Origin: Bolinopsis microptera
Lineage: Eukaryota > Ctenophora > Tentaculata > Lobata > Bolinopsidae
Direction of reading: 5' to 3'
Assembly: GCF_026151205.1 (NCBI RefSeq)
Contig: NC_087081.1
Span: 3,663,246 to 3,727,245, forward strand
DNA: 64,000 nucleotides
The position numbers were made by a program, and so were the translations under genes. Shown here piece by piece: positions 22,961 through 60,836 of this stretch; position 1 is the stretch's first letter; every line of letters begins with the position of its first letter. Under the pieces are notes generated by a model that saw nothing but the letters and a program-made list of their open reading frames with translations, was not told the DNA's origin and did no database searches.

Positions 22961-23905
22961 TACCACTAACAATGTATAGTAAGGACCTGCAAATCGTAAC
23001 CTTCTAAATACTACAAACACCTCTTGAAATAGGAAAACAGTATATATGCGCGACATAATTGATAATACTAATGACCGATGATGTATGACAAAATCACAGA
23101 ATACAGTGTAGCTTCTCTGAGTTAAAATTAAATAGGTTAAACTGTTTAATGGTTAAACTGTTCCAATGGTTGTAGATGCGTAGGTGATCAAAAAGATCAC
23201 CGCTGACTAGCAGTTCTGTGCTCTCACTATAAAAGCCAGGGCTGTGAATCGGAGGTACCCCGCTAGTGCCCCCCTGTCAGTACCTAGTCGAATAAGTCGA
23301 CCTTAGCCTCTCTGCAACAAGTCCTCCTGATGCCTCCACGTGGTGAAGACTGGATACTGGACGATGGATGGTGGTGAACTCCAGGCAAGAATCAGGATGG
23401 GCGACGGGTAGATAGCTGACCCCCGGAGAGACAAGATAGGAACGTCAGTTGTCTCTCGAACTCCTAGCCTCTGAAGAAGAGAGGTGCGGAGCATCAGCTG
23501 GAGGTGTTGGTCATTATATCCTCTGACTTTCCACTACGACCCAAATGATTGGACCACGCTCTGGTGGAAAGGATGACCCCCCATACCCGGGGTAACGGGC
23601 AGTCAGGGAGAGGGCTAGCTCCTGCAAAAGTTTAGCTTATGCTGACACCCTAGCCCCCCTACCTCAGGGACAGGAGTGGCTACCTTCGGGTAGTGTCGGA
23701 AAAGAAGAAGAAGAAGAAGAAGAACTCACCACATCATTTACCCTGAGCAGACAGTTCGATTGGTTAAAGTCTGAAAAAAAGTTCAACTCAAGTTGATGTT
23801 CCTGCGGTTCAAACCCAAATGTTCCGGTAGCGTGGCTTTGGGAAATGACCATTTGCCACCATGGAGGGGACTCCATGGGGTCATTTAGCTATTTGAAAAA
23901 CAACT

Positions 23906-27347: not shown

Positions 27348-28635
27348 TACAGAGGAATCGCTCTTACGTCCATTGTTAGTAAGACCCTGAATCGTATGAT
27401 CCTTAACAGAATCAAACCAGCGATGGAGAAAATACTGAGGATCAACCAAAACGGATTTCGGGAGGGACGCAGTACCACCAGCCACATTCTGTGTCTAAGG
27501 AGGATCTTGGAGGGGGCTAGAGACAAAAACCTGACCGCCCTTCTCTTGTTCATCGATTTTAAGAAGGCCTTTGATAGCATTCATAGGGGTATATTGATGA
27601 AGATACTCCTGGCATATGGGATACCAGAGCCCATTTGTTAGGCTGATAGATGCTATGTACAAGGACACCATGGCACGAGTCATCACGGAGGATGGTCTGA
27701 CTGAAGCTTTCCTTATACTGGCTGGAGTTATGCAGGGAGATACACTGGCGCCCTACCTCTTCGTGATTGTCATTGACTATGTGATGACAACAGCACTTAG
27801 AGGTAAAGATCTGGGCTTCACTGTCAACCCCAGAAGAAGCAGGAGATACCCAGCAGTTAAGATGACAGATGTCGACTTTGCTGACGATCTTGCACTGACA
27901 ACAGACACCGCAGAGCAAGCGCAAGATCTTCTCCTCAGTGTGGAGCTGGCTGCTAACTCCGTTGGACTTCACCTCAACGAGAGTAAGACGAAGTACATCA
28001 GAGTCAATCTCTCTGAGTCTGACTCTACCGTAATTAAAGCAGCAAGTGGGCAGGAGATAGAGCAAGTAGATGACTTTGTCTACCTTGGAAGCAGAATAAT
28101 GAGTGCGGAGAAGGACTTTGATGTTAGGAAAGCAAAGGCATGGGGGGCCTGTCATCAGTTAAAGACAACCTGGAAGTCTGGAATGCGCAGGGACTTAAAG
28201 ATCCGTGTCTTTCGAGCAACGGTTGAGCCTGTACTCCTGTACGGCTCTGAAGCTTGGACGATAAGCCAATCCATGACTAAGCGGATCAATGGATGCTACA
28301 CTAGAATGCTCCGGATGGCCTTGAACATACGTTGGCCACAAATCATCAACAACAGTGATTTATACGGCAACATCCCAAAGCCATCAGCGATGATAGCCTC
28401 CAGAAGAATGAGACTGGCTGGACATGTAGCCAGGCATGACGACCTTCTGGCAAACCAACTTCTGTTCTGGGACCCTCAGCATGGATACAGGAGACCGGGG
28501 AGGCCCCACCTTACGTTTCTGGACATGCTAAAGAAGGACACCAGCCTTTCCTGTGTTGAAGAGATAAGATCTGTTATGCTTGACCGCGACGTGTGGCGAG
28601 GAATTGTAGTTGCTCGGACCAAGAAGCCGACTTAA
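27348..28635 (+). pseudogene. Reverse transcriptase, C-terminal part
   Basis: Continues the RT after the insertion: ALTSIVSKTLNRMI, QNGFREGRSTT, FIDFKKAFDSI, VMQGDTLAPYLF, the active site FADDLAL (27877-27897), then YLGSRI, LLYGSEAWT and the RRPGRPHLTFLDML tail. An extra base in ATTTG near 27637 shifts the frame at PEPI; reading resumes in the next frame and stays open to TAA at 28633. Because of this shift and the insertion it cannot make a full protein. Confidence 0.9.
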
Positions 28636-38562: not shown

Positions 38563-38620
38563 ATGTTCGCACAGCTGATATGTTTCACTTACCTCATTCT
38601 TCTCACCTTACAATCAGAGG
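38563..38620 (+). CDS. Receptor exon 1: signal peptide
   Basis: MFAQLICFTYLILLTLQSE, a hydrophobic leader, then donor G|GTAAGT. Ends in phase 1, the only phase in which exon 2 stays open. Confidence 0.75.
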
Positions 38621-41600
38621 GTAAGTTACTAAATTAGTTACTAAATTAGTTACTTCTTAAATAACCACGATTTGATTGTTCGGGACATAAATAAGGGCAT
38701 GTTTAATGCTATTACGCATAAACTGGATAAGTTGGCCTAGTAACACCTAGTAACACCTAGTAACAACTAACACCTAGTAACACCTACTAACACCAGGGCT
38801 GTGCCCCCGATCAGAGATACCCTGCGCAGGCACATGTACTATCAAGCTCTCCCAGAGTCTTAACCACGGCCAGGCTGCTCTCCAGTGCAAAACTCAAAAC
38901 AAACGTACTTATATGGGGTGAGTGTTGTGGTGGAATAGTAAACTTTCAGTTTCGCTTTCAGTTTCGCTTTTTATTCTCTTGCAAAGCCGACTTGAAGTTA
39001 TTATGATCAATCTTAACCTAAAGTGTAATTTACACTGAAGAGGGTGACCGAGGGTCTAATGACCCCGTCCTCCAGTTCAAGAACTGACGATGAGTTGGAG
39101 AGTGGATGCGCTAGCTCTGTGTTTGGGACTAACACTAATCTTAATATCTGGTCTCGATATAAGCTCAGAGGTATTTATTTTATCATTGAGTTTAAACACT
39201 TTTAAGGAGAAGCTTATATATTTCCTTCCTATATTTCCTAGCTGAAGACGATTTACACATGCATTTTGAAAGCCCCTGCAAAAACAAACTTTTCGTATCA
39301 CTTATATGTTTTAAATAATCGCCCTCCAGGTATATTTCCTTGTTTCTCATGCTGACAAGAAAGGTTTACTAGCTATACCAGAAGTAGCTGAGCACATCTA
39401 ACTATTTCTAGGATTCCCACAATCCGAGACTTATAATTAGTACCCGTCAGTACTGTCCAGTCTCTAACATTATAATGTTTCAGATGGTTTGATAGTAGAT
39501 GAGACAGGAGTAACAATAGACAGGATAAACTGGGGTATAAAGTACTGTGGAGCTGTTGACCAACTGGGTAACTTCATGCCCCATCCTTGTACTTGGAACA
39601 ACTACCGAGCCATCTGCGTTAGTAACCAGAGTAAGTCTGCTGTTTTCTGACAAAAGTGCTTAAGTAACACTAGGTTCATTTTGTGCAAATTGACTTTAAA
39701 GATTTCAATTCTGTAATTGCTCTGAGCTAGCTGCTGTTTAAACTGCACTATGTTTCTAAGAGCTATCTGCTTTAGTAACCAGAGTAAGTGTACTCATCAC
39801 TACACACAAATATCTTAACTATTGCGCGGCTTGTTGGATAACACCAAATAACACTTGCTCCTTCACCAACACAACCTCACCCCGCAGTCCAATACGACAA
39901 GAATAACTTACGAGAGTGCGGGGGAGAATACTACTGGATAACGGACAGGTCGGATCTAGACTACGAGAGAGGGGTGGAACACTGTAGGCAGAACAACATG
40001 GTCCTTGCTACTCCCTATACTAATGCTAGGAGGAACTGCTTCCAGCCTGTTATGCAGGCTCGAGCGATATCTAAAGCTTGGATTAATTACAAGTAAGGGT
40101 TGTTTGTTAATTACAGGTAAGGGTTTTTTGTTAATTACAAGTAAGGATTAATTACAAGTAAGGATTACTTACAAGTAAGTAAGGGTTGTTTGTTAACTAT
40201 CTAAAGCTTGGATTAATTACAAGTAAGGGTTGTTATGTTAATTACAGGTAAGGGTGTCTTGTTATAAGTTAATTACTAGAAGGATTAATTACAAGTGTAA
40301 GGGTTGTAACTTTACTTGGATTATTACAAGTAAGGTTTTTTTACTTTTAAATACATTTGGTTTAAGTTAAATAGTTTATATGAAGAGTATTTGTATCGTT
40401 CAGATATATTTAATCTTTTGAAGAACAGTATTTGTACTAATATTTATAGAAATATAAACGAAACTATAATAATCTGAAGTCAAATTGACTATCGAGAACT
40501 GCACTAATTCAGCTTTATAGTCAACATGTCAATACGCAAACAAGGTTGTCTATGGCCTAACAATTAAGACCCAGGTCTTAGCCCGTCCTACATAATTAAG
40601 ACCAAGCAGAACCTCAAGTAATAAGAGGTTCTGTTTCCCGACAACTATTAATGTATTAATTGCAACTTTCCCGAAATAGTGTGATCAGTTATTTGTTATC
40701 TCTTTATCTGTAGCCTTGTTGATAACGCGTTGTGTTTCAGTATAACAGCAGCTACACAGAAGATAACACCGTGGGACCGGGAGTACTGTATCAAGGTTAA
40801 CAGGTACAACCAGTACACTGTAGATAAATGCGAGACTCGGCTGCCTGTCTTCTGCTCTAGTTTTGGAGGTTAGTTTTTAGTACTTTAGCTGTAGTGAGGA
40901 AACTTGTTAGAGGCAATCTTTGTTATCATGTGTATACTATGTGTACATAGTACATAGTCCATGTATACATGTAACATGTATAATTGTGACATGTATAGTA
41001 CATCAAAACAACATTTCAACACAATAAGTTAACTTATTAAGTTCGTTAAATACTAAAATTAGTAACCTTTCAGAACTAGAAGCATCCGGAGTAGTGGTAC
41101 AGAAAGGTGAACCTGCCGTTATGTCTTGTAAATGCTTTAACTGCACTGTCAATGATATAGGTTAGTGCCGCCCATATGGTTTTGTTGCTTGTACTCACGT
41201 TTAATAGCTAGCTCATGCAAGCAACTGTCCATCGACCTACTTTATTTATATATCGTGTTGAACATACTATTCTCAACGTTATTGCCCCCCCCCCCCCACT
41301 AATTATACCAACCTCCCCCTAACAATACCCCCCCCCCCTCACCCCACCCTAACAATACCCCACCCTAACAATACCCCGCCCCACCCTAACAAAACCCCAC
41401 CCCACCCTAACAATACCCCACCCCACCCTAACAATACCCCACCCCACCCTAACAATACCCACCCTAACAATACCCCACCCCACCCTAACAATACCCCACC
41501 CCACCCTAACAATACCCCACCCCACCCTAACAATACCCCACCCTAACAATACCCCGCCCCACCCTAACAATACCCCACCCCACCCTAACAATACCCCACC

Positions 41601-44600
41601 CCACCCTAACAATACCCCACCCCACCCTAACAAAACCCCACCCCACCCTAACAATACCCCACCCCACCCTAACAATACCCCACCCTAACAAAACCCCACC
41701 CTAACAATACCCCCCCCCCCCCCCCTAACAAAACCCCGCCCTAACAATACCCCACCCTAACAATACCCCACCCCACCCTAACAATACCCCACCCCACCCT
41801 AACAATACCCCCCCCCCCCCCCTAACAATACCCCACCCCACCAGAGTGGACGGATGGTATGACAGTATGGAGATCAGGAGATAACGCCGGAGGTTTCTCC
41901 GTCCGCTCAGTACCCGACACAACGGGCGTCAGATCAACCCTCACCCTAACTGAGACCTTGTTAGACCAGACCTTTACATGTGTTCAGAGAACTCATTTCT
42001 CCGACTCGGTTATATATAAAACTGTGGAGGTGGATGTTTATAATTTGGAGGTGACGTCACACTTTGTGTTTTATGGAGCACAGATTACTGTTACTTGCAA
42101 GTTTAACAATGATAAACATCTGGATATTGATAGGGTGGAGTGGAGTGATAGGAGGGATAATGTGAGTGCTATTTATTTCTTTATATTAGTTACAATTTTC
42201 TTTATTTATCCGTCTTTATATTATAGTTACAATGTTCTTTATTTATCCGTCTTTATATTATAGTTACAATGTTCTTTATTTATCCGTATTTATATTATAG
42301 TTACAATGTTCTTTATTTATCCGTCTTTATATTATAGTTACAATGTTCTTTATTTATCCGTCTTTATATTATAGTTACAATTTTCTTTATTTATCCGTCT
42401 TTATATTATAGTTACAATGTTCTTTATTTATCCGTCTTTATATTATAGTTACAATGTTCTTTATTTATCCGTCTTTATATTATAGTTACAATGTTCTTTA
42501 TTTATCCGTCTTTATATTATAGTTACAATGTTCTTTTCTTTATTTATCCGTCTTTATATTATAGTTACAATGTTCTTTATTTATCCGTCTTTATATTATA
42601 GTTACAATGTTCTTTATTTATCCGTCTTTATATTATAGTTACAATGTTCTTTATTTATCCGTCTTTATATTATAGTTACAATGTTCTTTATTTATCCGTC
42701 TTTATATAATAGTTACAATGTTCTTTATTTATCCGTCTTATCTCCTTTTATAACGTTTTTATTTCATTTTATATTTTTTCTGATCTGCTTTTCATTTTGA
42801 TTTAAAGTTTTCAAAGGAAGACAAGACAAGTGAATTAGTTTGAATTAATACTAGAAAACCCACTGTAAATGTAAATATTCAGATAACAAGAACGTTTGTG
42901 TCCTTTCTTTTCTGACCTATCTTTATTTTTAATGTTACTTTTCCATCACTACAGACGGATTTGTCGGGTAGAGCGCGGCTCTCCTACGACGAAGCAACAG
43001 TAGTGTCAAAACTAGAGATCCCTGTAGAGTATTACACCCATGATGTCATGTGCACTTTCTATGCTAGAGGGGACGGTATTACAGCTTACTCGGGTGTCAG
43101 CAGAATCATCATTTATAGTAAGTCAATAGTAAGTCAATAGCGGTTATCAACGACTTTAAGAACATTCCACCGTACGAACTCTGACCAGGCCCGTTTTTAG
43201 CCTTTGTTCGGTGAATTATATGAAATAGATATAACAAGGTGATCAGTTAGCCGGTAGATAACAGGAACATCTTCTCAGAGATAAACGGAGAAGACCAGTC
43301 AGTGCCTGCTAACGCTAACACGACCCTATCATGTGATCTGAGGGAGCAAGAGGGGAGAAGTGTGGATCTTATACCTCCTACCAGAGTCGACTGGTAAGTT
43401 TGTAATTTGACGTCATACCACGTGGCCTCACACCACGTGACCTCGCACCTTACTCTGTATATCTTTTTCAGTTTCTCCTTGCTTATGAGGAGTGGTACCC
43501 TCGTGCCACCAATCCTAACACTTGCTACCCCAGGAAACAAGGAGACAGCTCGTACATCATACCCTCGGATATAATAAACCCTTACAGAGCGGTCCTGGTG
43601 CGGAACATGAGGACCGGGGTAGATACCTACTCTTGCAGATTCCTCTTTGAGAACGGCAATATCCTCACCAAAACCCTTACCGTCACTGCTTTCGGTGCGT
43701 ACTCTTCTTTTTCTCTATTCGAATTTTGCTAATACTGGGAATACTGCATATTTAGCAGCTAAGCAATTAGATGTAATTGCAATAAGTAGTTTCATACTGC
43801 ATTTCCGTTTTAATAATGGCCTGGAAGAGCTCATCAATTCTAAGAGCCGTACTTTTAAAAGTACCGTGGAAGAATATGGGTATTTGCCCAATTTGAGTAT
43901 TTGTCCAATTTACCCTATTAAGCTATTAGCATTTGACTCTTGTTCCCTTGTTGTATTTGACTCTATTTCTGTTTTCCCCTAGATTTTGAAGGTATTCCCG
44001 CACTGGCAGCTAACGGTACAGCAGCAATGTTGAATTGTAAATACAGTAAAGGGGCCCCTCCTGACACGCCACTATGGTGGGAGCGAGAAGGTCAGTATAT
44101 TATAGATTATACATTATACATTATACATTATACCTTATACATTATAATATTATACACTATACATTATATTATTTAGTACCTTCTACCTGGCGAAAAAATC
44201 TGATAAAGACACAAACGGTCAGCCATTAGCTAATAACGAACCATGGCGAAGTAACAAGTCACTAGGTTCCTTACTCTGTACTGAGAAGGACATTCAAAGA
44301 AGGAGAATCCTAGCTGAGATTGCTTTTAAGAACTTTGGAAAAGTATGGTTGTCCGGTAAGAAAATTTCCCTTGAAAGAAAGCTGAGGTTATATGATGCTC
44401 AAGTTGTATCTGTATTGATCTACAACTCAAATAGTTGGAGTCCTAAGAAAGCAACCATGGAGAAAATGGACACACTCCATCGTAGACACCTCAGGTCCAT
44501 TTTAAACATCAAATGGCCTAAAGGTATGATAAGCAACAAAGCATTGTATGAAAGGTGCAAAGTTGAAAAGTTATCCAAGCGTATTGAACACCAGCGGTGG

Positions 44601-47600
44601 AAGATGTTTGGACACATTCTCAGGAGTATGGAGAACACCCCAGCCCAAACGGCTCTCTCTTTTGCTATTGAATCAGATAATTTATTCATTGGTAGATTGG
44701 GGAGACCTAGAATGAACTTGTTATCGGTTTTAAGAAGTGATTTAAGTAGTAGAAATTTGCAAATGGACAACTTGCATGAATTGAACGAAATTAGAGATAT
44801 AGCTGCATGCAACAGATGTTGGGAAAATCTTTTTCAAGGGTACAGTTTACCGCATTAAGGTATTTTTAAGAATCATTTTTGTCGGTAAGATCCTGTTTTA
44901 TAATAATAATAATAATACATTATATACTATACATTATAATATTATCATAAGAAGCTTTATAGTTTATACAAAGAAAAGGTTAGACTTATTGAAATGTTTC
45001 AAATGTTCTGGTCGTTATAACTAATAATTTGACTTTACTACTTCTTCATTTTACCTGATATAACTAATAATTTGACTTTACTACTTCCTCATTTTACCCG
45101 ATGATTTGCTTCAGGAGTTAAGATATCAAATGGTAAGAAGTATAAGGGAGAAACGTACGAGATAACGTCCAACTTCGTTAATGACGGTTTCTACATGGCC
45201 ACCACTACAGTTACTGTACGAAATGCTTCGGAGGAGGCAACTTTTCAGTGTGGGCTCAGAGTCTCGGGTAGGTTGATAGATTAATTAATTAATTGTTTAA
45301 ATTTAAATTATTATTAACAAATTTAAATTATTTCTTTGATTTTTCTTGATTTATAGGGATCTTTTATCTGGTGACTGTGCAACGTTGTAAGTATTATTTA
45401 TGTGTATATTATGAGCTGCATAGCATTTATTCCTTAAAAGTAATGACACCCATTTAAAACGAACACAAAACAGATAAAGTGTGGAGGAAAGATATCCCTA
45501 TGAAGATCTATATGGGAATGTTCATCGCCCCTAATGTAACGATTGCGGAGGAGATTGACTCGAACACTGGACAGATTGTAGTAAACTGCTCGGTGTGGGC
45601 TAATCCCCGTCCTAACATCCAGATATTCGTGGATACTGAGGTAATAACATCCAGATATTCGTGGATACTGAGGTAATAACTTCCAGATATTCGTGGATAC
45701 TGAGGTAATAACATCCAGATATTCGTGGATACTGAGGTAATAACATCCAGATATTCGTGGATACTGAGGTAATAACATCCAGATATTCGTGGATACTGAG
45801 GTAATAACATCCAGATATTCGTGGATACTGAGGTAATAACATCCAGATATTCGTGGATACTGAGGTAATAATATCCAGATATTCGTGGATACTGAGGTAA
45901 TAACATCCAGATATTCGTGGATACTGAGGTAATAACATCCAGATATTCGTGGATACTGAGGTAATAACATCCAGATATTCGTGGATACTGAGGTAATAAC
46001 ATCCAGATATTCGTGGATACTGAGGTAATAACATCCAGATATTCGTGGATACTGAGGTAATAACATCCAGATATTCGTGGATACTGAGGTAATAACATCC
46101 AGATATTCGTGGATACTGAGGTAATAACATCCAGATATTCGTGGATACTGAGGTAATAACATCCAGATATTCGTGGATACTGAGGTTATAATATCCAGAT
46201 ATTCGTGGATACTGAGGTAATAACATCCAGATATTCGTGGATACTGAGGTAATAACATCCAGATATTCGTGGATACTGAGGTAATAACATCCAGATATTC
46301 GTGGATACTGAGGTAATAACATCCAGATATTCGTGGATACTGAGGTAATAACATCCAGATATTCGTGGATACTGAGGTAATAACATCCAGATATTCGTGG
46401 ATACTGAGGTAATAACATCCAGATATTCGTGGATACTGAGGTAATAACATCCAGATATTCGTGGATACTGAGGTAATAACATCCAGATATTCGTGGATAC
46501 TGAGGTAATAACATCCAGATATTCGTGGATACTGAGGTAATAACATCCAGATATTCGTGGATACTGAGGTAATAACATCCAGATATTCGTGGATACTGAG
46601 GTAATACATCCAGATATTCGTGGATACTGAGGTAATAACATCCAGATATTCGTGGATACTGAGGTAATAACATCCAGATATTCGTGGATACTGAGGTAAT
46701 AACATCCAGATATTCGTGGATACTGAGGTAATAACTTCCAGATATTCGTGGATACTGAGGTAATAACATCCAGATATTCGTGGATACTGAGGTAATAACA
46801 TCCAGATATTCGTGGATACTGAGGTAATAACATCCAGATATTCGTGGATACTGAGGTAATAACTTCCAGATATTCGTGGATACTGAGGTAATAACATCCA
46901 GATATTCGTGGATACTGAGGTAATAACTTCCAGATATTCGTGGATACTGAGGTAATAACATCCAGATATTCGTGGATACTGAGGTAATAACATCCAGATA
47001 TTCGTGGATACTGAGGTAATAACATCCAGATATTCGTGGATACTGAGGTAATAACATCCAGATATTCGTGGATACTGAGGTAATAATATCAGATATTCGT
47101 GGATACTGAGGTAATAACATCCAGTTATTCGTGGATACTGAGGTAATAATATCTAGATATTCGTGGATACTGAGGTAATAACATCCAGATATTCGTGGAT
47201 ACTGAGGTAATAACATCCAGATATTCGTGGATACTGAGGTAATAACATCCAGATATTCGTGGATACTGAGGTAATAACATCCAGATATTCGTGGATACTG
47301 AGGTAATAACATCCAGATATTCGTGGATACTGAGGTAATAACATCCAGATATTCGTGGATACTGAGGTAATAACATCAGATATTCGTGGATACTGAGGTA
47401 ATAACATCCAGATATTCGTGGATACTGAGGTAATAACATCCAGATATTCGTGGATACTGAGGTAATAACATCCAGATATTCGTGGATACTGAGGTAATAA
47501 CATCCAGATATTCGTGGATACTGAGGTAATAACATCCAGATATTCGTGGATACTGAGGTAATAACATCCAGATATTCGTGGATACTGAGGTAATAATATC

Positions 47601-53600: not shown

Positions 53601-56600
53601 AGTAATAAACTTTAAAACCCTCTCAGATATGACACCTCCTGTTGAGTAATAAACTTTAAAACCCTCTCAGATATGACACCTCCTTTTGAGTAATAAACTT
53701 TAAAACCCTCTCAGATATGACACCTCCTGTTGAGTAATAAACTTTAAAACCCTCTCAGATATGACACCTCCTGTTGAGTAATAAACTTTAAAACCCTCTC
53801 AGATATGACACCTCCTGTTTAATAATAAACTTTAAAACCCTCTCAGATATGACACCTCCTGTTGAGTAATAAACTTTAAAACCCTCTCAGATATGACACC
53901 TCCTGTTGAGTAATAAACTTTAAAACCCTCTCAGATATGACACCTCCTGTTTAATAATAAACTTTAAAACCCTCTCAGATATGACACCTCCTGTTGAGTA
54001 ATAAACTTTAAAACCCTCTCAGATATGACACCTCCTGTTGAGTAATAAACTTTAAAACCCTCTCAGATATGACACCTCCTGTTTAATAATAAACTTTAAA
54101 ACCCTCTCAGATATGACACCTCCTGTTGAGTAATAACCTTTAAAACCCTCTCAGATATGACACCTCCTGTTGAGTAATAAACTTTAAAACCCTCTCAGAT
54201 ATGACACCTCCTGTTGAGTAATAAACTTTGAAACTCTCTCAGGTATGACACCTCCTGTTGAGTAATAAACTTTAAAACCCTCTCAGATATGACACCTCCT
54301 GTTGAGTAATAAACTTTAAAACCCTCTCAGATATGATACCTCCTGTTGAGTAATAAACTTTAAAACCCTCTCAGATATGACACCTCCTGTTGAGTAATAA
54401 ACTTTAAAACCCTCTCAGATATGACACCTCCTGTTGAGTAATAAACTTTAAAACCCTCTCAGATATGACACCTCCTGTTGAGTAATAAACTTTAAAACCC
54501 TCTCAGATATGACACCTCCTGTTGAGTAATAAACTTTAAAACCCTCTCAGATATGACACCTCCTGTTGAGTAATAAACTTTAAAACCCTCTCAGATATGA
54601 CACCTCCTGTTGAGTAATAAACTTTAAAACCCTCTCAGATATGACACCTCCTGTTGAGTAATAAACTTTAAAACCCTAGTCTCAGATATGACACCTCCTG
54701 TTGAGTAATAAACTTTAAAACCCTCTCAGATATGACACCTCCTGTTGAGTAATAAACTTTAAAACCCTAGTCTCAGATATGACACCTCCTGTTGAGTAAT
54801 AAACTTTAAAACCCTCTCAGATATGACACCTCCTGTTGAGTAATAAACTTTAAAACCCTAGTCTCAGATATGACACCTCCTGTTGAGTAATAAACTTTAA
54901 AACCCTCTCAGATATGACACCTCCTGTTGAGTAATAAACTTTAAAACCCTCTCAGATATGACACCTCCTGTTGAGTAATAAACTTTAAAACCCTCTCAGA
55001 TATGACACCTCCTGTTGAGTAATAAACTTTAAAACCCTAGTCTCAGATATGACACCTCCTGTTGAGTAATAAACTTTAAAACCCTCTCAGATATGACACC
55101 TCCTGTTGAGTAATAAACTTTAAAACCCTAGTCTCAGTCCTCAGATATGACACCTCCTGTTGAGTAATAAACTTTAAAACCCTAGTCTCAGATATGACAC
55201 CTCCTGTTGAGTAATAAACTTTAAAACCCTCTCAGATATGACACCTCCTGTTGAGTAATAAACTTTAAAACCCTCTCAGATATGACACCTCCTGTTGAGT
55301 AATAAACTTTAAAACCCTCTCAGATATGACACCTCCTGTTGAGTAATAAACTTTAAAACCCTCTCAGATATGACACCTCCTGTTGAGTAATAAACTTTAA
55401 AACCCTCTCAGATATGACACCTCCTGTTGAGTAATAAACTTTAAAACCCTCTCAGATATGACACCTCCTGTTGAGTAATAAACTTTAAAACCCTCTCAGA
55501 TATGACACCTCCTGTTGAGTAATAAACTTTAAAACCCTCTCAGATATGACACCTCCTGTTGAGTAATAAACTTTAAAACCCTCTCAGATATGACACCTCC
55601 TGTTGAGTAATAAACTTTAAAACCCTCTCAGATATGACACCTCCTGTTGAGTAATAAACTTTAAAACCCTCTCAGATATGACACCTCCTGTTGAGTAATA
55701 AACTTTAAAACCCTCTCAGATATGACACCTCCTGTTGAGTAATAAACTTTAAAACCCTCTCAGATATGACACCTCCTGTTGAGTAATAAACTTTAAAACC
55801 CTCTCAGATATGATACCTCCTGTTGAGTAATAAACTTTAAAACCCTCTCAGATATGACACCTCCTGTTGAGTAATAAACTTTGAAACTCTCTCAGGTATG
55901 ACACCTCCTGTTGAGTAATAAACTTTAAAACCCTCTCAGATATGACACCTCCTGTTGAGTAATAAACTTTAAAACCCTCTCAGATATGATACCTCCTGTT
56001 GAGTAATAAACTTTAAAACCCTCTCAGATATGACACCTCCTGTTGAGTAATAAACTTTAAAACCCTCTCAGATATGACACCTCCTGTTGAGTAATAAACT
56101 TTAAAACCCTCTCAGATATGACACCTCCTGTTGAGTAATAAACTTTAAAACCCTAGTCTCAGATATGACACCTCCTGTTGAGTAATAAACTTTAAAACCC
56201 TCTCAGATATGACACCTCCTGTTGAGTAATAAACTTTAAAACCCTAGTCTCAGTCCTCAGATATGACACCTCCTGTTGAGTAATAAACTTTAAAACCCTA
56301 GTCTCAGATATGACACCTCCTGTTGAGTAATAAACTTTAAAACCCTCTCAGATATGACACCTCCTGTTGAGTAATAAACTTTAAAACCCTCTCAGATATG
56401 ACACCTCCTGTTGAGTAATAAACTTTAAAACCCTCTCAGATATGACACCTCCTGTTGAGTAATAAACTTTAAAACCCTCTCAGATATGACACCTCCTGTT
56501 GAGTAATAAACTTTAAAACCCTCTCAGATATGACACCTCCTGTTGAGTAATAAACTTTAAAACCCTCTCAGATATGACACCTCCTGTTGAGTAATAAACT

Positions 56601-59600
56601 TTAAAACCCTCTCAGATATGACACCTCCTGTTGAGTAATAAACTTTAAAACCCTCTCAGATATGACACCTCCTGTTGAGTAATAAACTTTAAAACCCTCT
56701 CAGATATGACACCTCCTGTTGAGTAATAAACTTTAAAACCCTCTCAGATATGACACCTCCTGTTGAGTAATAAACTTTAAAACCCTCTCAGATATGACAC
56801 CTCCTGTTGAGTAATAAACTTTAAAACCCTCTCAGATATGACACTTCCTGTTGAGTAATAAACTTTAAAACCCTCTCAGATATGACACCTCCTGTTGAGT
56901 AATAAACTTTAAAACCCTCTCAGATATGATACCTCCTGTTGAGTAATAAACTTTAAAACCCTCTCAGATATGACACCTCCTGTTGAGTAATAAACTTTGA
57001 AACTCTCTCAGGTATGACACCTCCTGTTGAGTAATAAACTTTAAAACCCTCTCAGATATGACACCTCCTGTTGAGTAATAAACTTTAAAACCCTCTCAGA
57101 TATGATACCTCCTGTTGAGTAATAAACTTTAAAACCCTCTCAGATATGACACCTCCTGTTGAGTAATAAACTTTAAAACCCTCTCAGATATGACACCTCC
57201 TGTTGAGTAATAAACTTTAAAACCCTCTCAGATATGACACCTCCTGTTTAATAATAAACTTTAAAACCCTCTCAGATATGACACCTCCTGTTGAGTAATA
57301 AACTTTAAAACCCTCTCAGATATGACACCTCCTGTTGAGTAATAAACTTTAAAACCCTCTCAGATATGACACCTCCTGTTGAGTAATAAACTTTAAAACC
57401 CTCTCAGATATGACACCTCCTGTTGAGTAATAAACTTTAAAACCCTCTCAGATATGACACCTCCTGTTGAGTAATAAACTTTAAAACCCTCTCAGATATG
57501 ACACCTCCTGTTGAGTAATAAACTTTGAAACTCTCTCAGGTATGACACCTCCTGTTGAGTAATAAACTTTAAAACCCTCTCAGATATGACACCTCCTGTT
57601 GAGTAATAAACTTTAAAACCCTCTCAGATATGATACCTCCTGTTGAGTAATAAACTTTAAAACCCTCTCAGATATGACACCTCCTGTTGAGTAATAAACT
57701 TTAAAACCCTCTCAGATATGACACCTCCTGTTGAGTAATAAACTTTAAAACCCTCTCAGATATGACACCTCCTGTTTAATAATAAACTTTAAAACCCTCT
57801 CAGATATGACACCTCCTGTTGAGTAATAAACTTTAAAACCCTCTCAGATATGACACCTCCTGTTGAGTAATAAACTTTAAAACCCTCTCAGATATGACAC
57901 CTCCTGTTGAGTAATAAACTTTAAAACCCTCTCAGATATGACACCTCCTGTTGAGTAATAAACTTTAAAACCCTCTCAGATATGACACCTCCTGTTGAGT
58001 AATAAACTTTAAAACCCTCTCAGATATGACACCTCCTGTTGAGTAATAAACTTTGAAACTCTCTCAGATATGACACCTCCTGTTGAGTAATAAACTTTAA
58101 AACCCTCTCAGATATGACACCTCCTGTTGAGTAATAAACTTTAAAACCCTCTCAGATATGACACCTCCTGTTGAGTAATAAACTTTAAAACCCTCTCAGA
58201 TATGACACCTCCTGTTTAATAATAAACTTTAAAACCCTCTCAGATATGACACCTCCTGTTGAGTAATAAACTTTAAAACCCTCTCAGATATGACACCTCC
58301 TGTTGAGTAATAAACTTTAAAACCCTCTCAGATATGACACCTCCTGTTGAGTAATAAACTTTAAAACCCTCTCAGATATGACACCTCCTGTTGAGTAATA
58401 AACTTTAAAACCCTCTCAGATATGACACCTCCTGTTGAGTAATAAACTTTAAAACCCTCTCAGATATGACACCTCCTGTTGAGTAATAAACTTTAAAACC
58501 CTCTCAGATATGACACCTCCTGTTGAGTAATAAACTTTAAAACCCTCTCAGATATGACACCTCCTGTTGAGTAATAAACTTTAAAACCCTCTCAGATATG
58601 ACACCTCCTGTTGAATAATAAACCTTAAAACCCTCTCAGATATGACACCTCCTGTTGAGTAATAAACTTTGAAACTCTCTCAGATATGACACCTCCTGTT
58701 GAGTAATAAACTTTAAAACCCTCTCAGATATGACACCTCCTGTTTAGTAATAAACTTTAAAACCCTCTCAGATATGACACCTCCTGTTGAGTAATAAACT
58801 TTAAAACCCTCTCAGATATGACACCTCCTGTTGAGTAATAAACTTTAAAACCCTCTCAGATATGACACCTCCTGTGGAGTAATAAACTTTAAAACCCTCT
58901 CAGATATGACACCTCCTGTTGAGTAATAAACTTTAAAACCCTCTCAGATATGACACCTCCTGTTGAGTAATAAACTTTAAAACCCTCTCAGATATGACAC
59001 CTCCTGTTTAATAATAAACTTTAAAACCCTCTCAGATATGACACCTCCTGTTGCCATCCTCTCTCCTCGAGGCTGGGAGATCCCTGACGATCCTGCCAGA
59101 ATGTTCAGTCCTCCGACTGCGCGGCGTCCTAGAGAATATGAGCGGAAGTTCAGTGAGCCGGCCATCTTGCCCTGGCAAGATGCCCAGAATAAGGTCAATA
59201 ACTGGAACCTCCCTCCTACTGCAGAAGGTATGAAACAAGATGAACACATTTCACCTTCACACAAACGTTTTAACAACAGTTTTCAACGATGGCTGGAGTT
59301 GGTATTTGGGTTATATTTATAGATTTATGGTTATTGCTTAGGATCGAGGATAATATGGGTAAAGTTTTATAACCTCTAAATCCACTACAGAATTATACGA
59401 CAGACCTCCCAAAAGCGGCTGGTCAACCCCAGCTGGTCCCCTGAGTACAGTGGGAGAATCCACCGGCAAATCCTCGGCCACCCTGGACACCATCAGTGTG
59501 ACACCTACCTACCTGACAAAACCAATCAGTCTCCCCAAACCCAGCACCCACCCTTCTGATAGGGTTGCTGACTGTGTGTCCCCTCCCCCACTTTCAGTAG

Positions 59601-60836
59601 CTCCTTCTTCTGGTTACCCTCAGAGGTTGGTGTTTCTCTTCTAATAGTTGTTATTGTCATGGTAACACCTTCTTTTCTATCCACTTTTTAGTTGCCCCCG
59701 TAACCACCTATTATTATCATTGGTAACACCTCCTTGCTCTTTTCTCCCTTTTATAGTTGTCCTCTGATTATTGTTGCTGACTGTGTGTCTCCTCCCCCAC
59801 TCTGATTATTGTTGTCACGGTAACCTCTCTCTCTCTCCAGCTCAGTTGGTCCATCAGTCTCGGAGTACGAGAGCCCCATGAGTCCACCTACACACTTCCG
59901 GTCGGCTATTGATAACGATCGGCAAAGAAACAACCTTCAGAATAATGTATTCGATATTGACGATCTAAGTTCGGTTAGTTCTACCCTTCTTTGTTGTTAT
60001 CTTGCTTATATACCCTATAAACAGATTAAACGGATTAAACGATTCAAAAGTCAAATTACATGTCTGACCCAATACAAAAAGTAAAATTACCCAAAAGTCA
60101 AAAAGTATATATACTTTTTGATATATATATATCTGTTACCATTTTACTGACACCACGACTTCAACTTTAACAAGACTTTCCGCGAAAACCGTAAGAGACA
60201 TACTTTTGAAACATTTTTGGCTGGGTTGAATGCTTTTATGGCCTTTTGGTCATTATAAAGAAAGAAAGAATCGGCCAAGGAATAAACAATTTAGGTTCCG
60301 AAAAATGGACCCCCAGGTGGTGTCAAAATCACAAATTATGTCTCTTGACACCACTTTAGAGAAACACGGGTTCCTGCTAGTTTATACTAAGTTTCCACTT
60401 AACTACCACTTTATCACATGGTTAATGATCCTATAAATGATCAGGAGATTGTCCCCTTATCTCCCTGTTCCTACCCTCATGCCTGATTCACCACTTGATT
60501 AACCAGTCTCTGCACTCAGGTGGATGTACCGGAGAATGGGATGGACACGTTAGACAGAAGAGTCCAGTACAACATGCAGCCTGCTGCTGAGAATTTCTAC
60601 ACACCGTCTAGAGGACCTCCTCCTTCGGGGCCCAGTTCAGGGGCTAGGACACCACAGGGGACCAGGACACCACATGGAGTCAAGGTTAGCACGGTTTCTA
60701 CCATTTAACACTTTGTAGGATCTAGAATCTAGATTTTATAAACTATTTGTTATTTGTACGTTTGTTAAATCCGATCTAATTTCAGGTGCTGCCTACACTG
60801 CCGAAGAATCCAAATCTCCGGACATCACATTTTTAA
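38563..60836 (+). CDS. Type I receptor: C-type-lectin-like domain, about five Ig domains, TM, ITIM-type tail (24 exons)
   Basis: Assembled by hand from GT-AG junctions; every phase is consistent and the total is 3,537 nt (1,178 residues). Order: signal peptide 1-17; Cys-rich segment 20-68; C-type-lectin-like domain about 69-179 (CGGEYYWI, HCRQNNMVLATP, AWINYN, CETRLPVFC); Ig-like domains about 180-270, 271-368, 369-467, 468-554 and 555-670, each with paired Cys and most with the central Trp; transmembrane helix 683-704; tail 705-1178. The tail has LSYQNL at Tyr839 (ITIM pattern, also YxN), a YDPI/YMEL pair at 759/768 (ITAM-like but with a five-residue spacer) and a Pro-rich end. This is the layout of an animal cell-surface recognition receptor; ligand unknown. 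The introns hold large arrays copied from its own splice junctions. No AATAAA was seen close to the stop. The 5'UTR is undefined. Confidence 0.85.
38740..38797. repeat. Short (CTAGTAACAC)n array in intron 1
   Basis: Five or six 10-bp units; reverse complement of the 33036-33412 array unit. Confidence 0.85.
39484..39630 (+). CDS. Receptor exon 2: Cys-rich segment
   Basis: Residues 20-68. Contains KYCGAV, PHPCTW and RAICVSN. The last part resembles the closing Cys of a C-type-lectin-like fold, so it may be half of a second, degenerate lectin domain. Acceptor TTTCAG, donor AGA|GTAAGT. Confidence 0.85.
39760..39789 (+). repeat. Duplicate of the exon 2 donor junction in intron 2
   Basis: 30 bp matching 39607-39636 with two differences. 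It covers the last 24 nt of exon 2 and the GTAAGT donor. Confidence 0.9.
39888..40092 (+). CDS. Receptor exon 3: first part of the C-type-lectin-like domain
   Basis: Residues 69-137 with ECGGEYYWITDR, VEHCRQNNMVLATPY and SKAWINY, a recognisable CTLD core. No EPN/QPD or WND calcium-binding triad is evident, so sugar binding of the classical kind is doubtful. Donor AA|GTAAGG. Confidence 0.88.
40072..40330 (+). repeat. Serial duplications of the exon 3 donor junction
   Basis: TTACAAGTAAGG or TTACAGGTAAGG occurs about nine times, the first being the real junction. The copy at 40199-40233 carries at least 24 nt of exon 3 end (ATCTAAAGCTTGGATTAATT). Confidence 0.9.
40331..40740. other. Rest of intron 3
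   Basis: AT-rich intron sequence ending in the TTGTGTTTCAG acceptor. Nothing else seen. Confidence 0.6.
40741..40868 (+). CDS. Receptor exon 4: end of the C-type-lectin-like domain
   Basis: Residues 137-179: TPWDREYCIKVN, YTVDKCETRLPVFC. The spaced Cys and C-x-x-R-x-P-V-F-C end are typical of CTLDs. Donor GGAG|GTTAGT. Confidence 0.88.
41074..41160 (+). CDS. Receptor exon 5: Ig domain 1, first strand half
   Basis: Residues 180-208, VVVQKGEPAVMSCKCFNC, the B-strand Cys region of an Ig fold. Donor ATAG|GTTAGT. Confidence 0.83.
41285..41844. repeat. C-rich 21-bp array filling the 3' end of intron 5
   Basis: Units of TAACAATACCCCACCCCACCC, about 26 copies with variants and C runs, ending CCACCAG exactly at the exon 6 acceptor. 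The opposite strand is G-run rich (quadruplex potential). The array itself supplies the pyrimidine tract. Confidence 0.95.
41845..42161 (+). CDS. Receptor exon 6: end of Ig 1 and start of Ig 2
   Basis: Residues 209-314. Trp at 210, then STLTLTETLLDQTFTCVQ (F-strand Cys254), then Ig 2 with GAQITVTCKF and RVEWSD. Donor AAT|GTGAGT, phase 0. Confidence 0.88.
42170..42740. repeat. 37-bp array in intron 6
   Basis: About 15 copies of GTTCTTTATTTATCCGTCTT followed by TATATTATAGTTACAAT. It starts 8 nt after the exon 6 donor. Each copy contains TTATATTATAG, acceptor-like but with a poor pyrimidine tract. Confidence 0.95.
42741..42954. other. Rest of intron 6
   Basis: Unique AT-rich sequence ending in the CATCACTACAG acceptor. 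Confidence 0.6.
42955..43117 (+). CDS. Receptor exon 7: end of Ig 2
   Basis: Residues 315-368 with SKLEIPVEYYTHDVMCTFYA (F-strand Cys). The donor A|GTAAGTCAAT is immediately followed by a second AGTAAGTCAAT, an 11-bp tandem duplication of the donor. Confidence 0.85.
43258..43393 (+). CDS. Receptor exon 8: Ig 3, first half
   Basis: Residues 369-414, ANANTTLSCDLRE and TRVDW. Of the nearby AGs, only the acceptor CCGGTAG|ATAACAG keeps the frame; its pyrimidine tract is poor, so this boundary is the least certain in the gene. Confidence 0.75.
43534..43694 (+). CDS. Receptor exon 9: Ig 3, second half
   Basis: Residues 414-467, RTGVDTYSCRFLFENG. The Trp codon is split across the junction with exon 8. 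Donor TTCG|GTGCGT. Confidence 0.83.
43983..44090 (+). CDS. Receptor exon 10: Ig 4, first half
   Basis: Residues 468-503, GTAAMLNCKYSKG and LWWERE. Acceptor TTTTCCCCTAG, donor GAAG|GTCAGT. Confidence 0.85.
44195..44925 (+). pseudogene. RTE-like retrotransposon 3' fragment in intron 10
   Basis: Reads NEPWRSNKSLGSLLC, KNFGKVWLSG, LYDAQVVSVLIYNSNSW, LHRRHLRSILNIKWPK and RLGRPRMNLL to a TAA at 44856-44858, then an AATAATAATAAT tail. It is the C-terminal part of an RT related to, but clearly a different lineage from, the 23-28 kb element. In the same orientation as the gene. The frame is still open, which suggests a fairly recent insertion. Confidence 0.85.
45115..45267 (+). CDS. Receptor exon 11: Ig 4, second half
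   Basis: Residues 504-554, TTTVTVRNASEEATFQCGL. Acceptor GCTTCAG, donor CTCGG|GTAGGT. Confidence 0.85.
45357..45386 (+). CDS. Receptor exon 12: 30-nt micro-exon
   Basis: Residues 555-564, IFYLVTVQR. Acceptor TTTATAG, donor GTT|GTAAGT. Skipping it would remove exactly ten residues without changing frame, so it may be a cassette exon. Confidence 0.72.
45474..45640 (+). CDS. Receptor exon 13: Ig 5, first half
   Basis: Residues 565-620, GQIVVNCSVWANPRPN and IQIFVDTE. Ends in phase 0 at GATACTGAG|GTAATAAC. The last 28 nt and the donor are the source of the 32-bp array that follows. Confidence 0.87.
45613..48706 (+). repeat. 32-bp array built from the exon 13 donor junction, about 97 copies
   Basis: The unit is the last 24 nt of exon 13 (from ATCCAGATATTCGTGG to ACTGAG) plus intron bases GTAATAAC. 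The first unit is the exon itself. Nearly all copies keep GAG|GTAATA. Variants are mainly AACTTCC or AATATCC for AACATCC. Because 32 is not a multiple of 3 and the minus strand has no stops, very long minus-strand frames run through it; these are artefacts. Confidence 0.97.
48707..50055 (-). mobile_element. ORF1-only LINE-type insertion inside the 32-bp array
   Basis: 1.35 kb of unique sequence between two parts of the same array, holding one intact minus-strand frame (48974-49924) and about 130 bp before and 270 bp after it. No endonuclease/RT frame, no poly-A, no clear target duplication. Either a fragment or a non-autonomous ORF1-only element. Confidence 0.75.
48974..49924 (-). CDS. LINE ORF1-type protein: coiled coil plus RRM-like domain
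   Basis: 316 codons from the first ATG (the frame is open a little further upstream). Residues about 105-150 are a Lys/Glu-rich coiled coil (IIELQEKLLSKQEEDMTKIS). This is followed by an RRM-like part, SKSLIIFGIPETEE, VRPVKFTLSSSDQARTIL, VYITPDRSAADR. This order is that of ORF1 proteins of L1/CR1-type retrotransposons, which form trimers and bind RNA. The frame is intact, opposite to the host gene, and inside its intron 13. A relic of the same family lies at 7783-8020. Confidence 0.8.
   Translation of the reverse strand: MPLPLQNEHLDMLDDAMVMNGQFLTEYVNQIHMATNSIFKEIRIKIGAEHNDDVEFDKLNQRSVPRERLSEWLETVCCLLNDYCGPLLQSATETATDNRVFRKEKIEDANKIIELQEKLLSKQEEDMTKISDLQEKLALKKDDEIGTVKSAAQKEIKTFSSLLKNTCKNAFAPKKIQAAVKRVALEEDRSKSLIIFGIPETEENLDAKVSGILLDHLNEKPKILRCNRVGKDTSERVRPVKFTLSSSDQARTILSKTKLLRHVDGFTSVYITPDRSAADRIAYKKVVVQLLNKRTAEPDKVHVIRNFRVISSEKEP
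50056..50297 (+). repeat. 32-bp array, right part (about 7.5 copies)
   Basis: Same unit as 45613-48706, continuing after the insertion. Confidence 0.97.
50445..50613 (+). CDS. Receptor exon 14: end of Ig 5 and juxtamembrane segment
   Basis: Residues 621-676: TTLTVRIDQTCEAPQLKCLA, then NKKCGFFAK. Acceptor TCTCGACCAG; donor AAAT|GTAGGT chosen because only this phase opens exon 15. Confidence 0.8.
50750..50889 (+). CDS. Receptor exon 15: transmembrane helix
   Basis: Residues 677-723: LAIGGSLLLLVIIIIVICCC then FCRKTKELKEE. A 22-residue hydrophobic span followed by a basic stop-transfer sequence and a Cys cluster that could be palmitoylated. Donor CTCAG|GTTAAT. Confidence 0.88.
50886..51122 (+). 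repeat. About 59-bp array starting at the exon 15 donor
   Basis: TCAG followed by TTTAATAC-like sequence recurs at 50886 (the real exon end), 50946, 51001, 51060 and 51119. The first unit begins at the exon 15 donor; the last ends in the acceptor-like CTCTCTCAG. Confidence 0.8.
51165..51266 (+). CDS. Receptor exon 16: tail, YEDMYSEAG
   Basis: Residues 724-757. Acceptor CTTACCTGTCAG chosen. An in-frame upstream alternative at CTCTCTCAG|GTCATG (51123) would add 14 residues. Donor AAT|GTGAGT. Confidence 0.8.
51322..51741. mobile_element. 420-bp inverted-repeat element in intron 16
   Basis: Ends ACGAACACCGATGGGACA and its exact reverse complement (51322-51339, 51724-51741). The interior is (TAAGACAACAT)n going in and the reverse complement coming out, so it folds on itself. 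Confidence 0.85.
51773..51815 (+). repeat. Duplicate of the exon 16 donor junction
   Basis: 43 bp matching 51231-51273 with two synonymous differences (GCC to GCT, GGC to GGT). It includes the GTGAGT donor and lies just beyond the inverted-repeat element. Confidence 0.92.
51970..52454. repeat. 18-bp E-box array (CACGTGACTACTCCTAAT)n in intron 16
   Basis: About 27 copies, each with CACGTG. Two irregular units carry TCCAGACTTT. The array runs to the exon 17 acceptor (CTCCTACAG). Open frames on both strands come from the 18-bp period. Confidence 0.96.
52456..52613 (+). CDS. Receptor exon 17: tyrosine-rich tail segment
   Basis: Residues 758-809: NYDPIVKDKMYMELHD, YNQPYSEVGLMSPKYQRI, SDYEP. Seven Tyr; YDPI and YMEL form an ITAM-like pair with a short spacer; YQRI fits an endocytic YxxPhi motif. 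Donor AG|GTCAGC. Confidence 0.83.
52888..53073 (+). CDS. Receptor exon 18: ITIM-type motif
   Basis: Residues 810-871 with TTTLSYQNLKEQ. LSYQNL matches the (I/V/L/S)xYxx(I/V/L) ITIM pattern and its YQN matches a GRB2-type YxN site. Acceptor TCTCCGCAG. Confidence 0.83.
53200..53290. repeat. Imperfect hairpin in intron 18
   Basis: GATTTGTTACTGGGGACGAAT pairs with ATTCGTCCTCAGTAACCAATC across a short loop, with few mismatches. Confidence 0.7.
53370..53515 (+). CDS. Receptor exon 19: tail
   Basis: Residues 872-920, KMNPFGNVQRLKS and DDEIMSITSKIPP. No domain recognised. Donor CTG|GTTCGT. Confidence 0.8.
53600..59052 (+). repeat. 44-bp array built from the exon 20 acceptor junction, about 124 copies
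   Basis: The unit carries TTTAAAACCCTCTCAG, then exon bases ATATGACACCTCCTGTT, then GAGTAATAAAC. The last unit is the real acceptor and start of exon 20. Most copies keep the CTCTCAG acceptor. Variants (CCCTAGTCTCAG, GAAACTCTCTCAGG, ATGATACC, GTTTAATAA) recur in blocks, showing higher-order duplication. Confidence 0.97.
59036..59227 (+). CDS. Receptor exon 20: tail
   Basis: Residues 921-984: MTPPVAILSPRGWEIPDD, RMFSPPTARRPREYERKF. Pro/Arg-rich. Its first 17 nt belong to the repeat unit. Donor GAAG|GTATGA. Confidence 0.82.
59391..59625 (+). CDS. Receptor exon 21: Ser/Thr/Pro-rich tail
   Basis: Residues 985-1062: LYDRPPKSGW, then TLDTISVTPTYLTKP and VADCVSPPPLSVAPSSG. Acceptor CCACTACAG, donor AGAG|GTTGGT. 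Confidence 0.82.
59626..59840 (+). repeat. Intron 21 with a copied piece of exon 21
   Basis: 59773-59801 matches exon 21 positions 59564-59592 (GTTGCTGACTGTGTGTC, then CCTCCCCCAC) with two or three differences. The intron also holds three diverged copies of GTTATTGTCATGGTAACACC. Confidence 0.85.
59841..59973 (+). CDS. Receptor exon 22: tail
   Basis: Residues 1063-1107: VSEYESPMSPPTHF, NNVFDIDDLSS. Acceptor CTCTCTCCAG, donor TCG|GTTAGT, phase 0. Confidence 0.82.
60099..60120. repeat. 22-bp perfect palindrome in intron 22
   Basis: CAAAAAGTATA followed by its reverse complement; no spacer. Confidence 0.9.
60520..60684 (+). CDS. Receptor exon 23: Pro/Gly-rich tail
   Basis: Residues 1108-1162: RRVQYNMQPAAENFYTPSRG, then PPPSGPSSG and two RTP-x-G repeats. 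Phase 0 at both ends. Confidence 0.82.
60786..60836 (+). CDS. Receptor exon 24: C-terminus and stop
   Basis: VLPTLPKNPNLRTSHF then TAA at 60834-60836. Acceptor TAATTTCAG. Confidence 0.78.
   Translation: MLPTLPKNPNLRTSHF

What the first reader, a model, noticed from the sequence alone, without database searches (positions are those of the whole stretch)
39484..59801. One gene whose introns are repeatedly seeded by copies of its own splice junctions
In a single receptor gene, the junctions of exons 2, 3, 7, 13, 15 and 16 (donors) and 20 (acceptor), plus an internal piece of exon 21, are duplicated into the adjacent intron, from one copy to over a hundred. The repeats of introns 5 and 16 also end exactly at acceptors. 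Chance would not place so many array boundaries on exon/intron borders. A possible explanation is that slippage or unequal exchange at a junction is tolerated because one working copy always remains, so junctions become nucleation points for minisatellites. I know of no named system like this.
Basis: partly seen in the sequence, partly recalled or inferred. Interest (0 to 1): 0.95.

Follow-up and report, generated by a model that had tools for sequence, protein, structure and literature searches.

The report
Repeat arrays copied across splice junctions
In a comb-jelly receptor gene, short stretches spanning the ends of coding exons have been copied into the neighbouring introns, up to about 120 times; this is a known kind of repeat ("mirages" in lancelets) seen here in a very different animal, and it offers a natural test of how cells pick one splice site among many identical ones.

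Summary
The window lies in a ctenophore genome (probably Bolinopsis microptera). A 24-exon gene (38563-60836) carries copies of its own junctions: donors of exons 2, 3, 7, 13, 15 and 16, the acceptor of exon 20, and a piece of exon 21. Exons 7 and 15 are the weakest cases.

"No named system" is wrong: junction-spanning minisatellites are known from amphioxus as "mirages". I found the same anatomy in 8 other genes of this genome, and less surely a ninth.

That junctions nucleate arrays is not established. In this gene local duplication rises from exon into intron without a peak at the donor. In 258 kb elsewhere 2 of 120 arrays hold a predicted donor (4.8 expected) and none an acceptor (4.6 expected). 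Against this, a post-hoc model gives a donor excess in this gene (6 against 1.5-2.1), and donor-motif clusters exceed control about three-fold.

Best reading: young minisatellites fill the introns (62% of intron bases), tolerated across donors, mostly rejected at acceptors.

The parts
38563..60836 (+). host gene, 24 exons: signal peptide, Ig-like ectodomain, transmembrane segment in exon 15, long cytoplasmic tail
   Evidence: gene model and translation, coding score, weak Ig matches; exons 9-21 matched nowhere else in the genome (exons 1-8 not searched)
39607..39641 (+). exon 2 donor junction, original
   Evidence: 35 nt, 89% identical to 39760-39794; score 45, 0 of 100 shuffles
39760..39794 (+). 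dispersed copy of the exon 2 donor junction in intron 2
40068..40264 (+). array of the exon 3 donor junction (units 17, 24 and 65 bp)
   Evidence: TRF; score 60; 10 exon bases repeated
43115..43140 (+). 11-bp array at the exon 7 donor, 2.4 copies; only 3 exon bases
   Evidence: TRF; score 22, 0 of 100 shuffles
45613..50297 (+). 32-bp array across the exon 13 donor: 97 units to 48706, insertion 48710-50056, 7 more units
   Evidence: 102 of 286 GT sites in the intron score at least as high as the authentic donor
50886..51110 (+). 59-bp array in intron 15 that starts at the exon 15 donor; imperfect match at the splice site
   Evidence: TRF; score 25, 0 of 100 shuffles
51231..51273 (+). exon 16 donor junction, original 43 nt
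   Evidence: 95% identical to 51773-51815
51773..51815 (+). copy of the exon 16 donor junction, beyond a foldback element
51322..51741 (.). foldback element in intron 16: 37-nt inverted ends around 11-bp repeats
   Evidence: arms 51322-51358 and 51705-51741, 97% complementary
53599..59053 (+). 44-bp array across the exon 20 acceptor, about 121-123 units
   Evidence: 108 of 251 AG sites as strong as the authentic acceptor; 17 exon bases repeated
59773..59808 (+). copy of an internal piece of exon 21 (59564-59599) in intron 21
   Evidence: 36 nt, 89%
41357..41842 (+). 21-bp array in intron 5 that stops just before the acceptor; no exon sequence
   Evidence: exon 6 starts 41845
51971..52452 (+). 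18-bp array in intron 16 that stops just before the acceptor; no exon sequence
   Evidence: exon 17 starts 52456
42178..42739 (+). 37-bp array inside intron 6, away from both junctions (example of a non-junction array)

Best explanation
An ordinary receptor-like gene of a lobate ctenophore whose introns have been overrun by young minisatellites. Seven of its 46 intron ends lie in locally duplicated sequence, as arrays or single copies of the type known in amphioxus as mirages. Likely steps: (1) a short segment is duplicated locally by slippage or repair between short matching ends (inferred; the readable end overlaps are 0 to 6 bp). (2) The duplicate grows by unequal exchange or slippage (inferred from near-identical units and from differing copy numbers at two copies of another locus). 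(3) Selection filters positions. Duplications inside introns are free. Those across a donor survive because the exon-proximal donor still joins in frame. Those across an acceptor are mostly lost, presumably because an extra acceptor upstream competes with the real one. Those inside exons are lost. The position of arrays at junctions therefore reflects tolerance more than nucleation. That splicing really uses the outermost site is inferred from the open frame, not shown.
For: Introns 61.8% array, exons 3.2%. Share of introns with a local duplicate: 0/21 at 72 nt inside the exon, 6/23 at the donor, 7-10 of 19-23 from +24 to +96 into the intron; on the acceptor side 0/22 at 24 nt inside the exon, 1/23 at the junction, 5/23 at +12, 8/23 at +24. 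Array-placement test: acceptors 1 against 2.8 expected in the gene (P 0.19) and 0 against 4.6 in 258 kb elsewhere (P 0.002); donors 4 against 2.85 and 2 against 4.8. Decoy use would bring a stop or a frame shift. In the two long arrays 74 of 97 and 88 of 121 units equal the consensus, and the splice signals are mutated less than other positions (in the 6 full-length units right of the insertion slightly more, on 3 changes). Same anatomy in other genes. Two places with the same unit have 37.0 and 26.1 copies.
Against: The event model for this gene gives more donor-spanning units than uniform placement (6 against 1.5-2.1, P 0.001-0.009). Exact donor-motif tandem pairs exceed the reversed motif (1515 against 38, and 1507 against 223). 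Of 10 independent arrays of four or more copies on contig C1 picked by a donor motif, 6 cross a junction and 1 starts at a donor. The acceptor avoidance rests on predicted exons (69 calls in 100 kb random sequence against 46 in the same sequence reversed, at the threshold used). No RNA was available.
Confidence: 0.72

Rival explanations
1. Splice donors actively nucleate minisatellites: the donor consensus, or pausing or R-loops at exon ends, promotes slippage, so junctions are hotspots.
For: Event model donor excess in this gene. Tandem donor pairs 1515 against 38 and 1507 against 223 reversed. Clusters on C1 0-15.83 Mb: 16 donor-motif (15 distinct, two of them the same unit) against 5 control (4 if two neighbours are joined), while single sites of the first motif differ only 10758 against 7965. 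Of 10 independent arrays of four or more copies on C1, 6 cross a junction, and so does the one long array of the first control list.
Against: No peak at the donor in the profile. No enrichment by placement tests. 3 of 113 donors against 3 of 110 intron-interior windows in kinase/receptor loci. Of 32 arrays of 4.5 or more copies outside the gene 1 crosses a called junction, leaving aside false exon calls in satellite locus L063. Pair counts are inflated by long arrays, and the gene was chosen post hoc.
Confidence: 0.2
2. The arrays are functional: tandem splice sites give variable exon length or regulate splicing, as in polyubiquitin-type repeat genes.
For: Signals in more than 100 decoys are intact. 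Tandem arrays of dual-use AGGT sites are used in UBC (PMC10809524, abstract only).
Against: Reading into the arrays meets stops (+1 to +96 nt), and units of 32 and 44 bp are not multiples of 3. Intact signals are also expected from young arrays.
Confidence: 0.04
3. Introns were created by tandem duplication of exon pieces (Rogers model) or by introner-like elements.
For: In intron 15 donor and acceptor share the motif TCTCAG|GT and the repeat fills most of the intron.
Against: In the other six introns the copy is on one side only. The exon 13 unit was found only at this locus, so it is no dispersed introner.
Confidence: 0.03
4. Assembly or sequencing artefact that multiplied junctions.
For: The exon 8/9 frame shift suggests at least one small error or a defect. 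The copy count of long arrays may be inexact.
Against: Units carry distinct variants (14 kinds in each of the two long arrays), one array is split by an insertion, and the same anatomy appears in unrelated loci.
Confidence: 0.02

Closest known systems
Mirages: junction-spanning minisatellites of amphioxus (Adh3, globins BflGb6/BflGb9, troponin C, PGBD5); PMC3087553 passages read, PMC3902484 passage read; Canestro et al. 2002 known only through these (not held)
   Same: Units that carry part of an exon, the splice signal and part of the intron; both 5' and 3' boundaries affected; many decoy AG/GT signals retained
   Different: Ctenophore, not cephalochordate; seven intron ends in one gene; over 100 copies in two introns; units 11-59 bp (amphioxus Adh3 10-72 bp, globins 150-160 bp); splicing not tested here
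Internal tandem repeats at exon-intron boundaries of human paralogs in segmental duplications (PMC2812944, passages read)
   Same: Minisatellite-type repeats at exon-intron boundaries
   Different: There they change transcripts and can form new introns; here no transcript evidence
Intron gain by tandem genomic duplication (Rogers model; PMC4974935 and PMC2891723 seen only in a search listing)
   Same: Duplication of exon-end sequence with a splice motif
   Different: Here existing introns grow; only intron 15 has matching ends
Tandem arrays of dual-specific splice sites in polyubiquitin (PMC10809524, abstract and outline seen)
   Same: Many identical splice motifs in a row
   Different: There the sites delimit repeat monomers and are used; here decoys lead to stops or frame shifts

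Membership tests
Mirage (junction-spanning minisatellite) | minisatellite-like duplicated units | tested here: met
   TRF arrays in introns 3, 7, 13, 15, 19; the copies of exons 2 and 16 are single and dispersed
Mirage (junction-spanning minisatellite) | unit spans the exon/intron boundary and carries the splice signal | tested here: met
   6 of 23 donors and 1 of 23 acceptors; clear for exons 2, 3, 13, 16, 20, weak for 7 and 15
Mirage (junction-spanning minisatellite) | both 5' and 3' boundaries can be duplicated | tested here: met
   donors plus the intron 19 acceptor; copine-like acceptor array L067
Mirage (junction-spanning minisatellite) | mRNA splicing undisturbed | not testable with these tools
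   no RNA; only the frame argument
Mirage (junction-spanning minisatellite) | length instability | tested here: inconclusive
   same unit 37.0 and 26.1 copies at two places C1:36k and C1:761k, which could be a duplicated gene or a misplaced haplotype
Intron gain by tandem duplication | donor and acceptor of the new intron derive from copies of one segment | tested here: not met
   junction copies are on one side only in introns 2, 3, 7, 13, 16, 19; intron 15 inconclusive
Introner elements | near-identical copies in many unrelated introns | tested here: not met
   the exon 13 junction query matched only this locus, 47 places all in C10:3708805-3713528; the other units were not searched

The most novel reading that the evidence does not exclude
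In ctenophores junction-spanning minisatellites are common enough (hundreds of genes, by rough extrapolation from two exact motifs on one chromosome) to be a main route of intron growth, and their positions record a splicing rule: arrays may pass a donor but not an acceptor, because the exon-proximal donor wins among identical donors whereas an upstream acceptor would win among identical acceptors.
Probability: 0.3. Interest if true: 0.72.

Novelty: new member of a known kind. Interest (0 to 1): 0.5.

Why it matters
The papers I could see describe mirages from cephalochordates only. Finding them in a ctenophore, in several genes, suggests a recurrent by-product of minisatellite-rich genomes. 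Introns 13 and 19 hold 102 donor-type and 108 acceptor-type sites as strong as the authentic ones, a natural test of how the spliceosome chooses among identical sites. The donor/acceptor asymmetry (acceptors 1 seen against 7.4 expected, donors 6 against 7.6; sums of the two groups) makes that choice rule testable from genome sequence.

Tried and rejected
Raw pair counts as proof of nucleation: rejected because long arrays dominate, and counting clusters shrinks the excess to about three-fold. The permuted control motif GATGAGTA (334 pairs; its reverse 108) contains a donor-like GAGTA and was not used as a clean control; the reversed motif TGAGTGGA is also partly donor-like. Acceptor-motif pairs (2308 against 1092) are dominated in the listed part by dispersed repeats and were not used. 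I first took the 32-bp arrays L049/L050 for a non-genic satellite; a both-strand exon scan showed a donor array of a coding exon. Random locus L063 is a CT-rich satellite that the exon caller mistakes for exons: the random set gave 7 of 51 donors, 6 of them in L063, so I set that row aside; L063 was left out. The exon caller's training ORFs lie in the kinase/receptor loci that it was later used on. Of 17 array ends I used only those with readable overlaps (introns 7, 13, 19; L042, L049/L050, L056); the rest, among them introns 3, 15 and L055, could not be read. The Pfam hit Orthoreo_P10 covers only the transmembrane segment and was discarded. Structure prediction was not run, as the question is about introns. 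Searches for the Ig family PF07679 did not complete.

Full report
WHAT IT IS. The window is G000:C10:3663246-3727245 of a 264.65 Mb assembly in 232 contigs. Contigs C1-C13 are 15.2-26.2 Mb each and sum to about 258 Mb, 97.5% of the assembly. A glutamate-receptor ORF of the genome (L048) matches the ligand-binding domain of ML032222a iGluR far better (E 9e-121) than the best vertebrate receptor (3.5e-71); that ML032222a is from Mnemiopsis is recalled. Bolinopsis microptera has 13 chromosome-scale scaffolds holding 97.23% of its bases and 265 Mb in 346 scaffolds, against 248 Mb for M. leidyi. So the source is a ctenophore, most likely B. microptera; the scaffold count differs (232 here) and the species was not tested directly.

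THE GENE. Twenty-four exons on the + strand, 38563-60836, encode a signal peptide, an ectodomain with weak Ig matches (E about 0.005-0.06, below Pfam cut-offs), a transmembrane segment and a long tail. The protein of exons 9-21 matched only this locus: 11 of 11 matches; exons 1-8 were not searched. A coding model trained on 38 kb of other genes scores the true frame above zero in 22 of 24 exons, and the exon caller finds the exact exon start for 22 of 23 donors, with splice matrices made from these same introns. One blemish: at intron 8 the obvious GT-AG sites shift the frame by one base.

THE OBSERVATION. Junction copies in the adjacent intron are found at 6 of 23 donors (introns 2, 3, 7, 13, 15, 16) and 1 of 23 acceptors (intron 19), each with 0 of 100 shuffles as high; the next best end, the intron 15 acceptor, had 2 of 100, and all others 12 or more. 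Exons 2, 3, 13, 16 and 20 contribute 9 or more exon bases, exon 7 only 3, and exon 15 matches with a shift. Three duplications are single dispersed copies (exons 2, 16 and 21). The exon 16 copies flank a foldback element with 37-nt inverted ends. The intron 13 array has 97 + 7 units and the intron 19 array 121; 74 of 97 and 88 of 121 units equal the consensus. In intron 13, 102 of 286 GT sites score at least as high as the authentic donor; in intron 19, 108 of 251 AG sites do so for the acceptor. Reading past the six duplicated donors meets a stop +1 to +96 nt downstream.

PRIOR ART. Tandem repeats spanning exon-intron boundaries were named "mirages" in amphioxus Adh3, then reported in amphioxus globins, troponin C and, as imperfect repeats, PGBD5; both boundaries occur, and RT-PCR of the globins suggested regular splicing (passages). 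Similar repeats at human exon-intron boundaries are described in PMC2812944 (passages). My searches for a report outside chordates listed none that I recognised; I saw titles and abstract starts only. The library holds only open-licence papers, so absence from print is not shown.

OTHER GENES. Junction arrays elsewhere in this genome, with exon bases repeated: L049/L050 (same unit at two places, 37.0 and 26.1 copies; 29 or more), L055 and L056 (about 35 or more; L056 is a metalloprotease-like exon, Reprolysin E 0.0012, below cut-off), L064 (about 35-41), L065 (26; weak Ig- and sushi-type matches, E 0.009 and 0.027), L067 (17, acceptor of a copine-like exon, E 1.5e-4, below cut-off), L068 (7) and L069 (two copies only; 6 clean bases, longer with mismatches). 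These are 8 genes. L042 (8) has a weaker exon call. On C1, 18 clusters were examined: 11 with AGGTAAGT, all of C1; 8 with AGGTGAGT, up to 15.83 Mb; L055 is in both. Of these, 8 cross a called junction (L049, L050, L055, L056, L065, L067, L068, L069); L071 starts at a donor with 2 exon bases; L070 stops at an acceptor; the other 8 do neither. Counting arrays of at least four copies and the L049/L050 pair once, 6 of 10 cross.

IS IT MORE THAN CHANCE? Five tests. (a) Profile in this gene: 0/21, 6/23 and 7-10 of 19-23 introns duplicated at -72, 0 and +24 to +96 from the donor; on the acceptor side 0/22 at 24 nt inside the exon, 1/23 at the junction and 5/23 at +12. There is no junction peak. (b) Event model for 19 duplications in this gene: 6 donor-spanning against 1.5-2.1 expected (P 0.001-0.009); either end 7 against 3.0-4.2 (P 0.009-0.076). 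It is post hoc, with events listed by hand. (c) Windows elsewhere: kinase/receptor loci, donors 3/113, intron interior 3/110, exon interior 4/108; rest of the window, donors 0/12; random loci, donors 7/51 and intron interior 9/50, mostly from satellite locus L063. Focal gene: donors 5/23, intron interior 8/22, exon interior 0/20. (d) Array placement against positions shuffled with collapsed arrays: outside the gene, without L063, 120 arrays and 211 predicted exons, donor 2 against 4.78, acceptor 0 against 4.63 (P 0.002); in the gene, donor 4 against 2.85 (P 0.32), acceptor 1 against 2.81. With a stricter exon threshold, outside the gene: donor 1 against 3.26, acceptor 0 against 3.27 (P 0.03); the full-length shuffle points the same way. 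(e) Genome-wide exact motif pairs: AGGTAAGT 1515 against 38 reversed, AGGTGAGT 1507 against 223; single AGGTAAGT sites 10758 against 7965. Collapsed to clusters on C1 0-15.83 Mb this is 16 (15 distinct) against 5. Tests a, c and d speak against nucleation; b and e leave room for a donor preference of a few fold.

MECHANISM. Shown: near-identical young units; array ends overlapping by TAACAT (intron 13), ATAG (intron 7), T (intron 19), TTTATC (L042), GAGGG (L056) and nothing in L049/L050 (other ends not readable). Intron bases are 61.8% array against 3.2% of exon bases; of 10 random 10-kb loci, eight have 1-11% array and two 37% and 74%. Inferred: birth by slippage or repair at short matches, growth by unequal exchange, and a selection filter that passes donor copies, mostly stops acceptor copies and removes exon-internal ones. 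Arrays that stop just short of acceptors (introns 5 and 16; L070; L060, about 7 bp away) fit that filter. The intron 19 array and L067 cross acceptors and show that the filter is not absolute.

VERDICT. A real and striking example of a known kind of repeat in a phylum where I found no earlier report. The special claim that junctions seed arrays is unproven.

Noticed in passing
window 43393-43472: Under the obvious GT-AG sites intron 8 shifts the frame by one base, so exons 9-24 are open only in another frame; sequencing error, missed micro-exon or real defect.
   Followed up: partly
window 48710-50056: The intron 13 array is split by a 1.3-kb insertion with a 330-aa ORF on the - strand; the array resumes at TACT, which also ends the left part.
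   Followed up: partly
window 44148-44858: Intron 10 holds a 236-aa ORF that looks like the end of a retrotransposon (weak DUF6451 match).
   Followed up: no
window 23897-28635: Non-LTR retrotransposon pieces: endonuclease ORF 23897-25753 and reverse transcriptase ORF 27601-28635.
   Followed up: no
window 12540-12777: An 18-bp minisatellite (13 copies) lies inside a 404-aa ORF on the - strand and encodes KDKSKE repeats.
   Followed up: no
window 39091-39169: A second possible signal-peptide start (MSWRVDALALCLGLTLILISG) in intron 1, not in phase with exon 2.
   Followed up: no
L049 and L050 (C1:35900-39200, C1:760700-763700): The same exon and junction array occur twice 0.7 Mb apart with 37.0 and 26.1 units: a duplicated gene or misplaced haplotype showing array length change.
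   Followed up: partly
G000, 32 matches to PF10613: Many ionotropic glutamate receptor matches lie in single open frames of 650-990 codons, that is no introns in most of the coding part.
   Followed up: no
L027:2446-2859: An 11-bp GACAACAATAA array and its inverted partner, like the foldback element of focal intron 16, so that element is probably dispersed.
   Followed up: no
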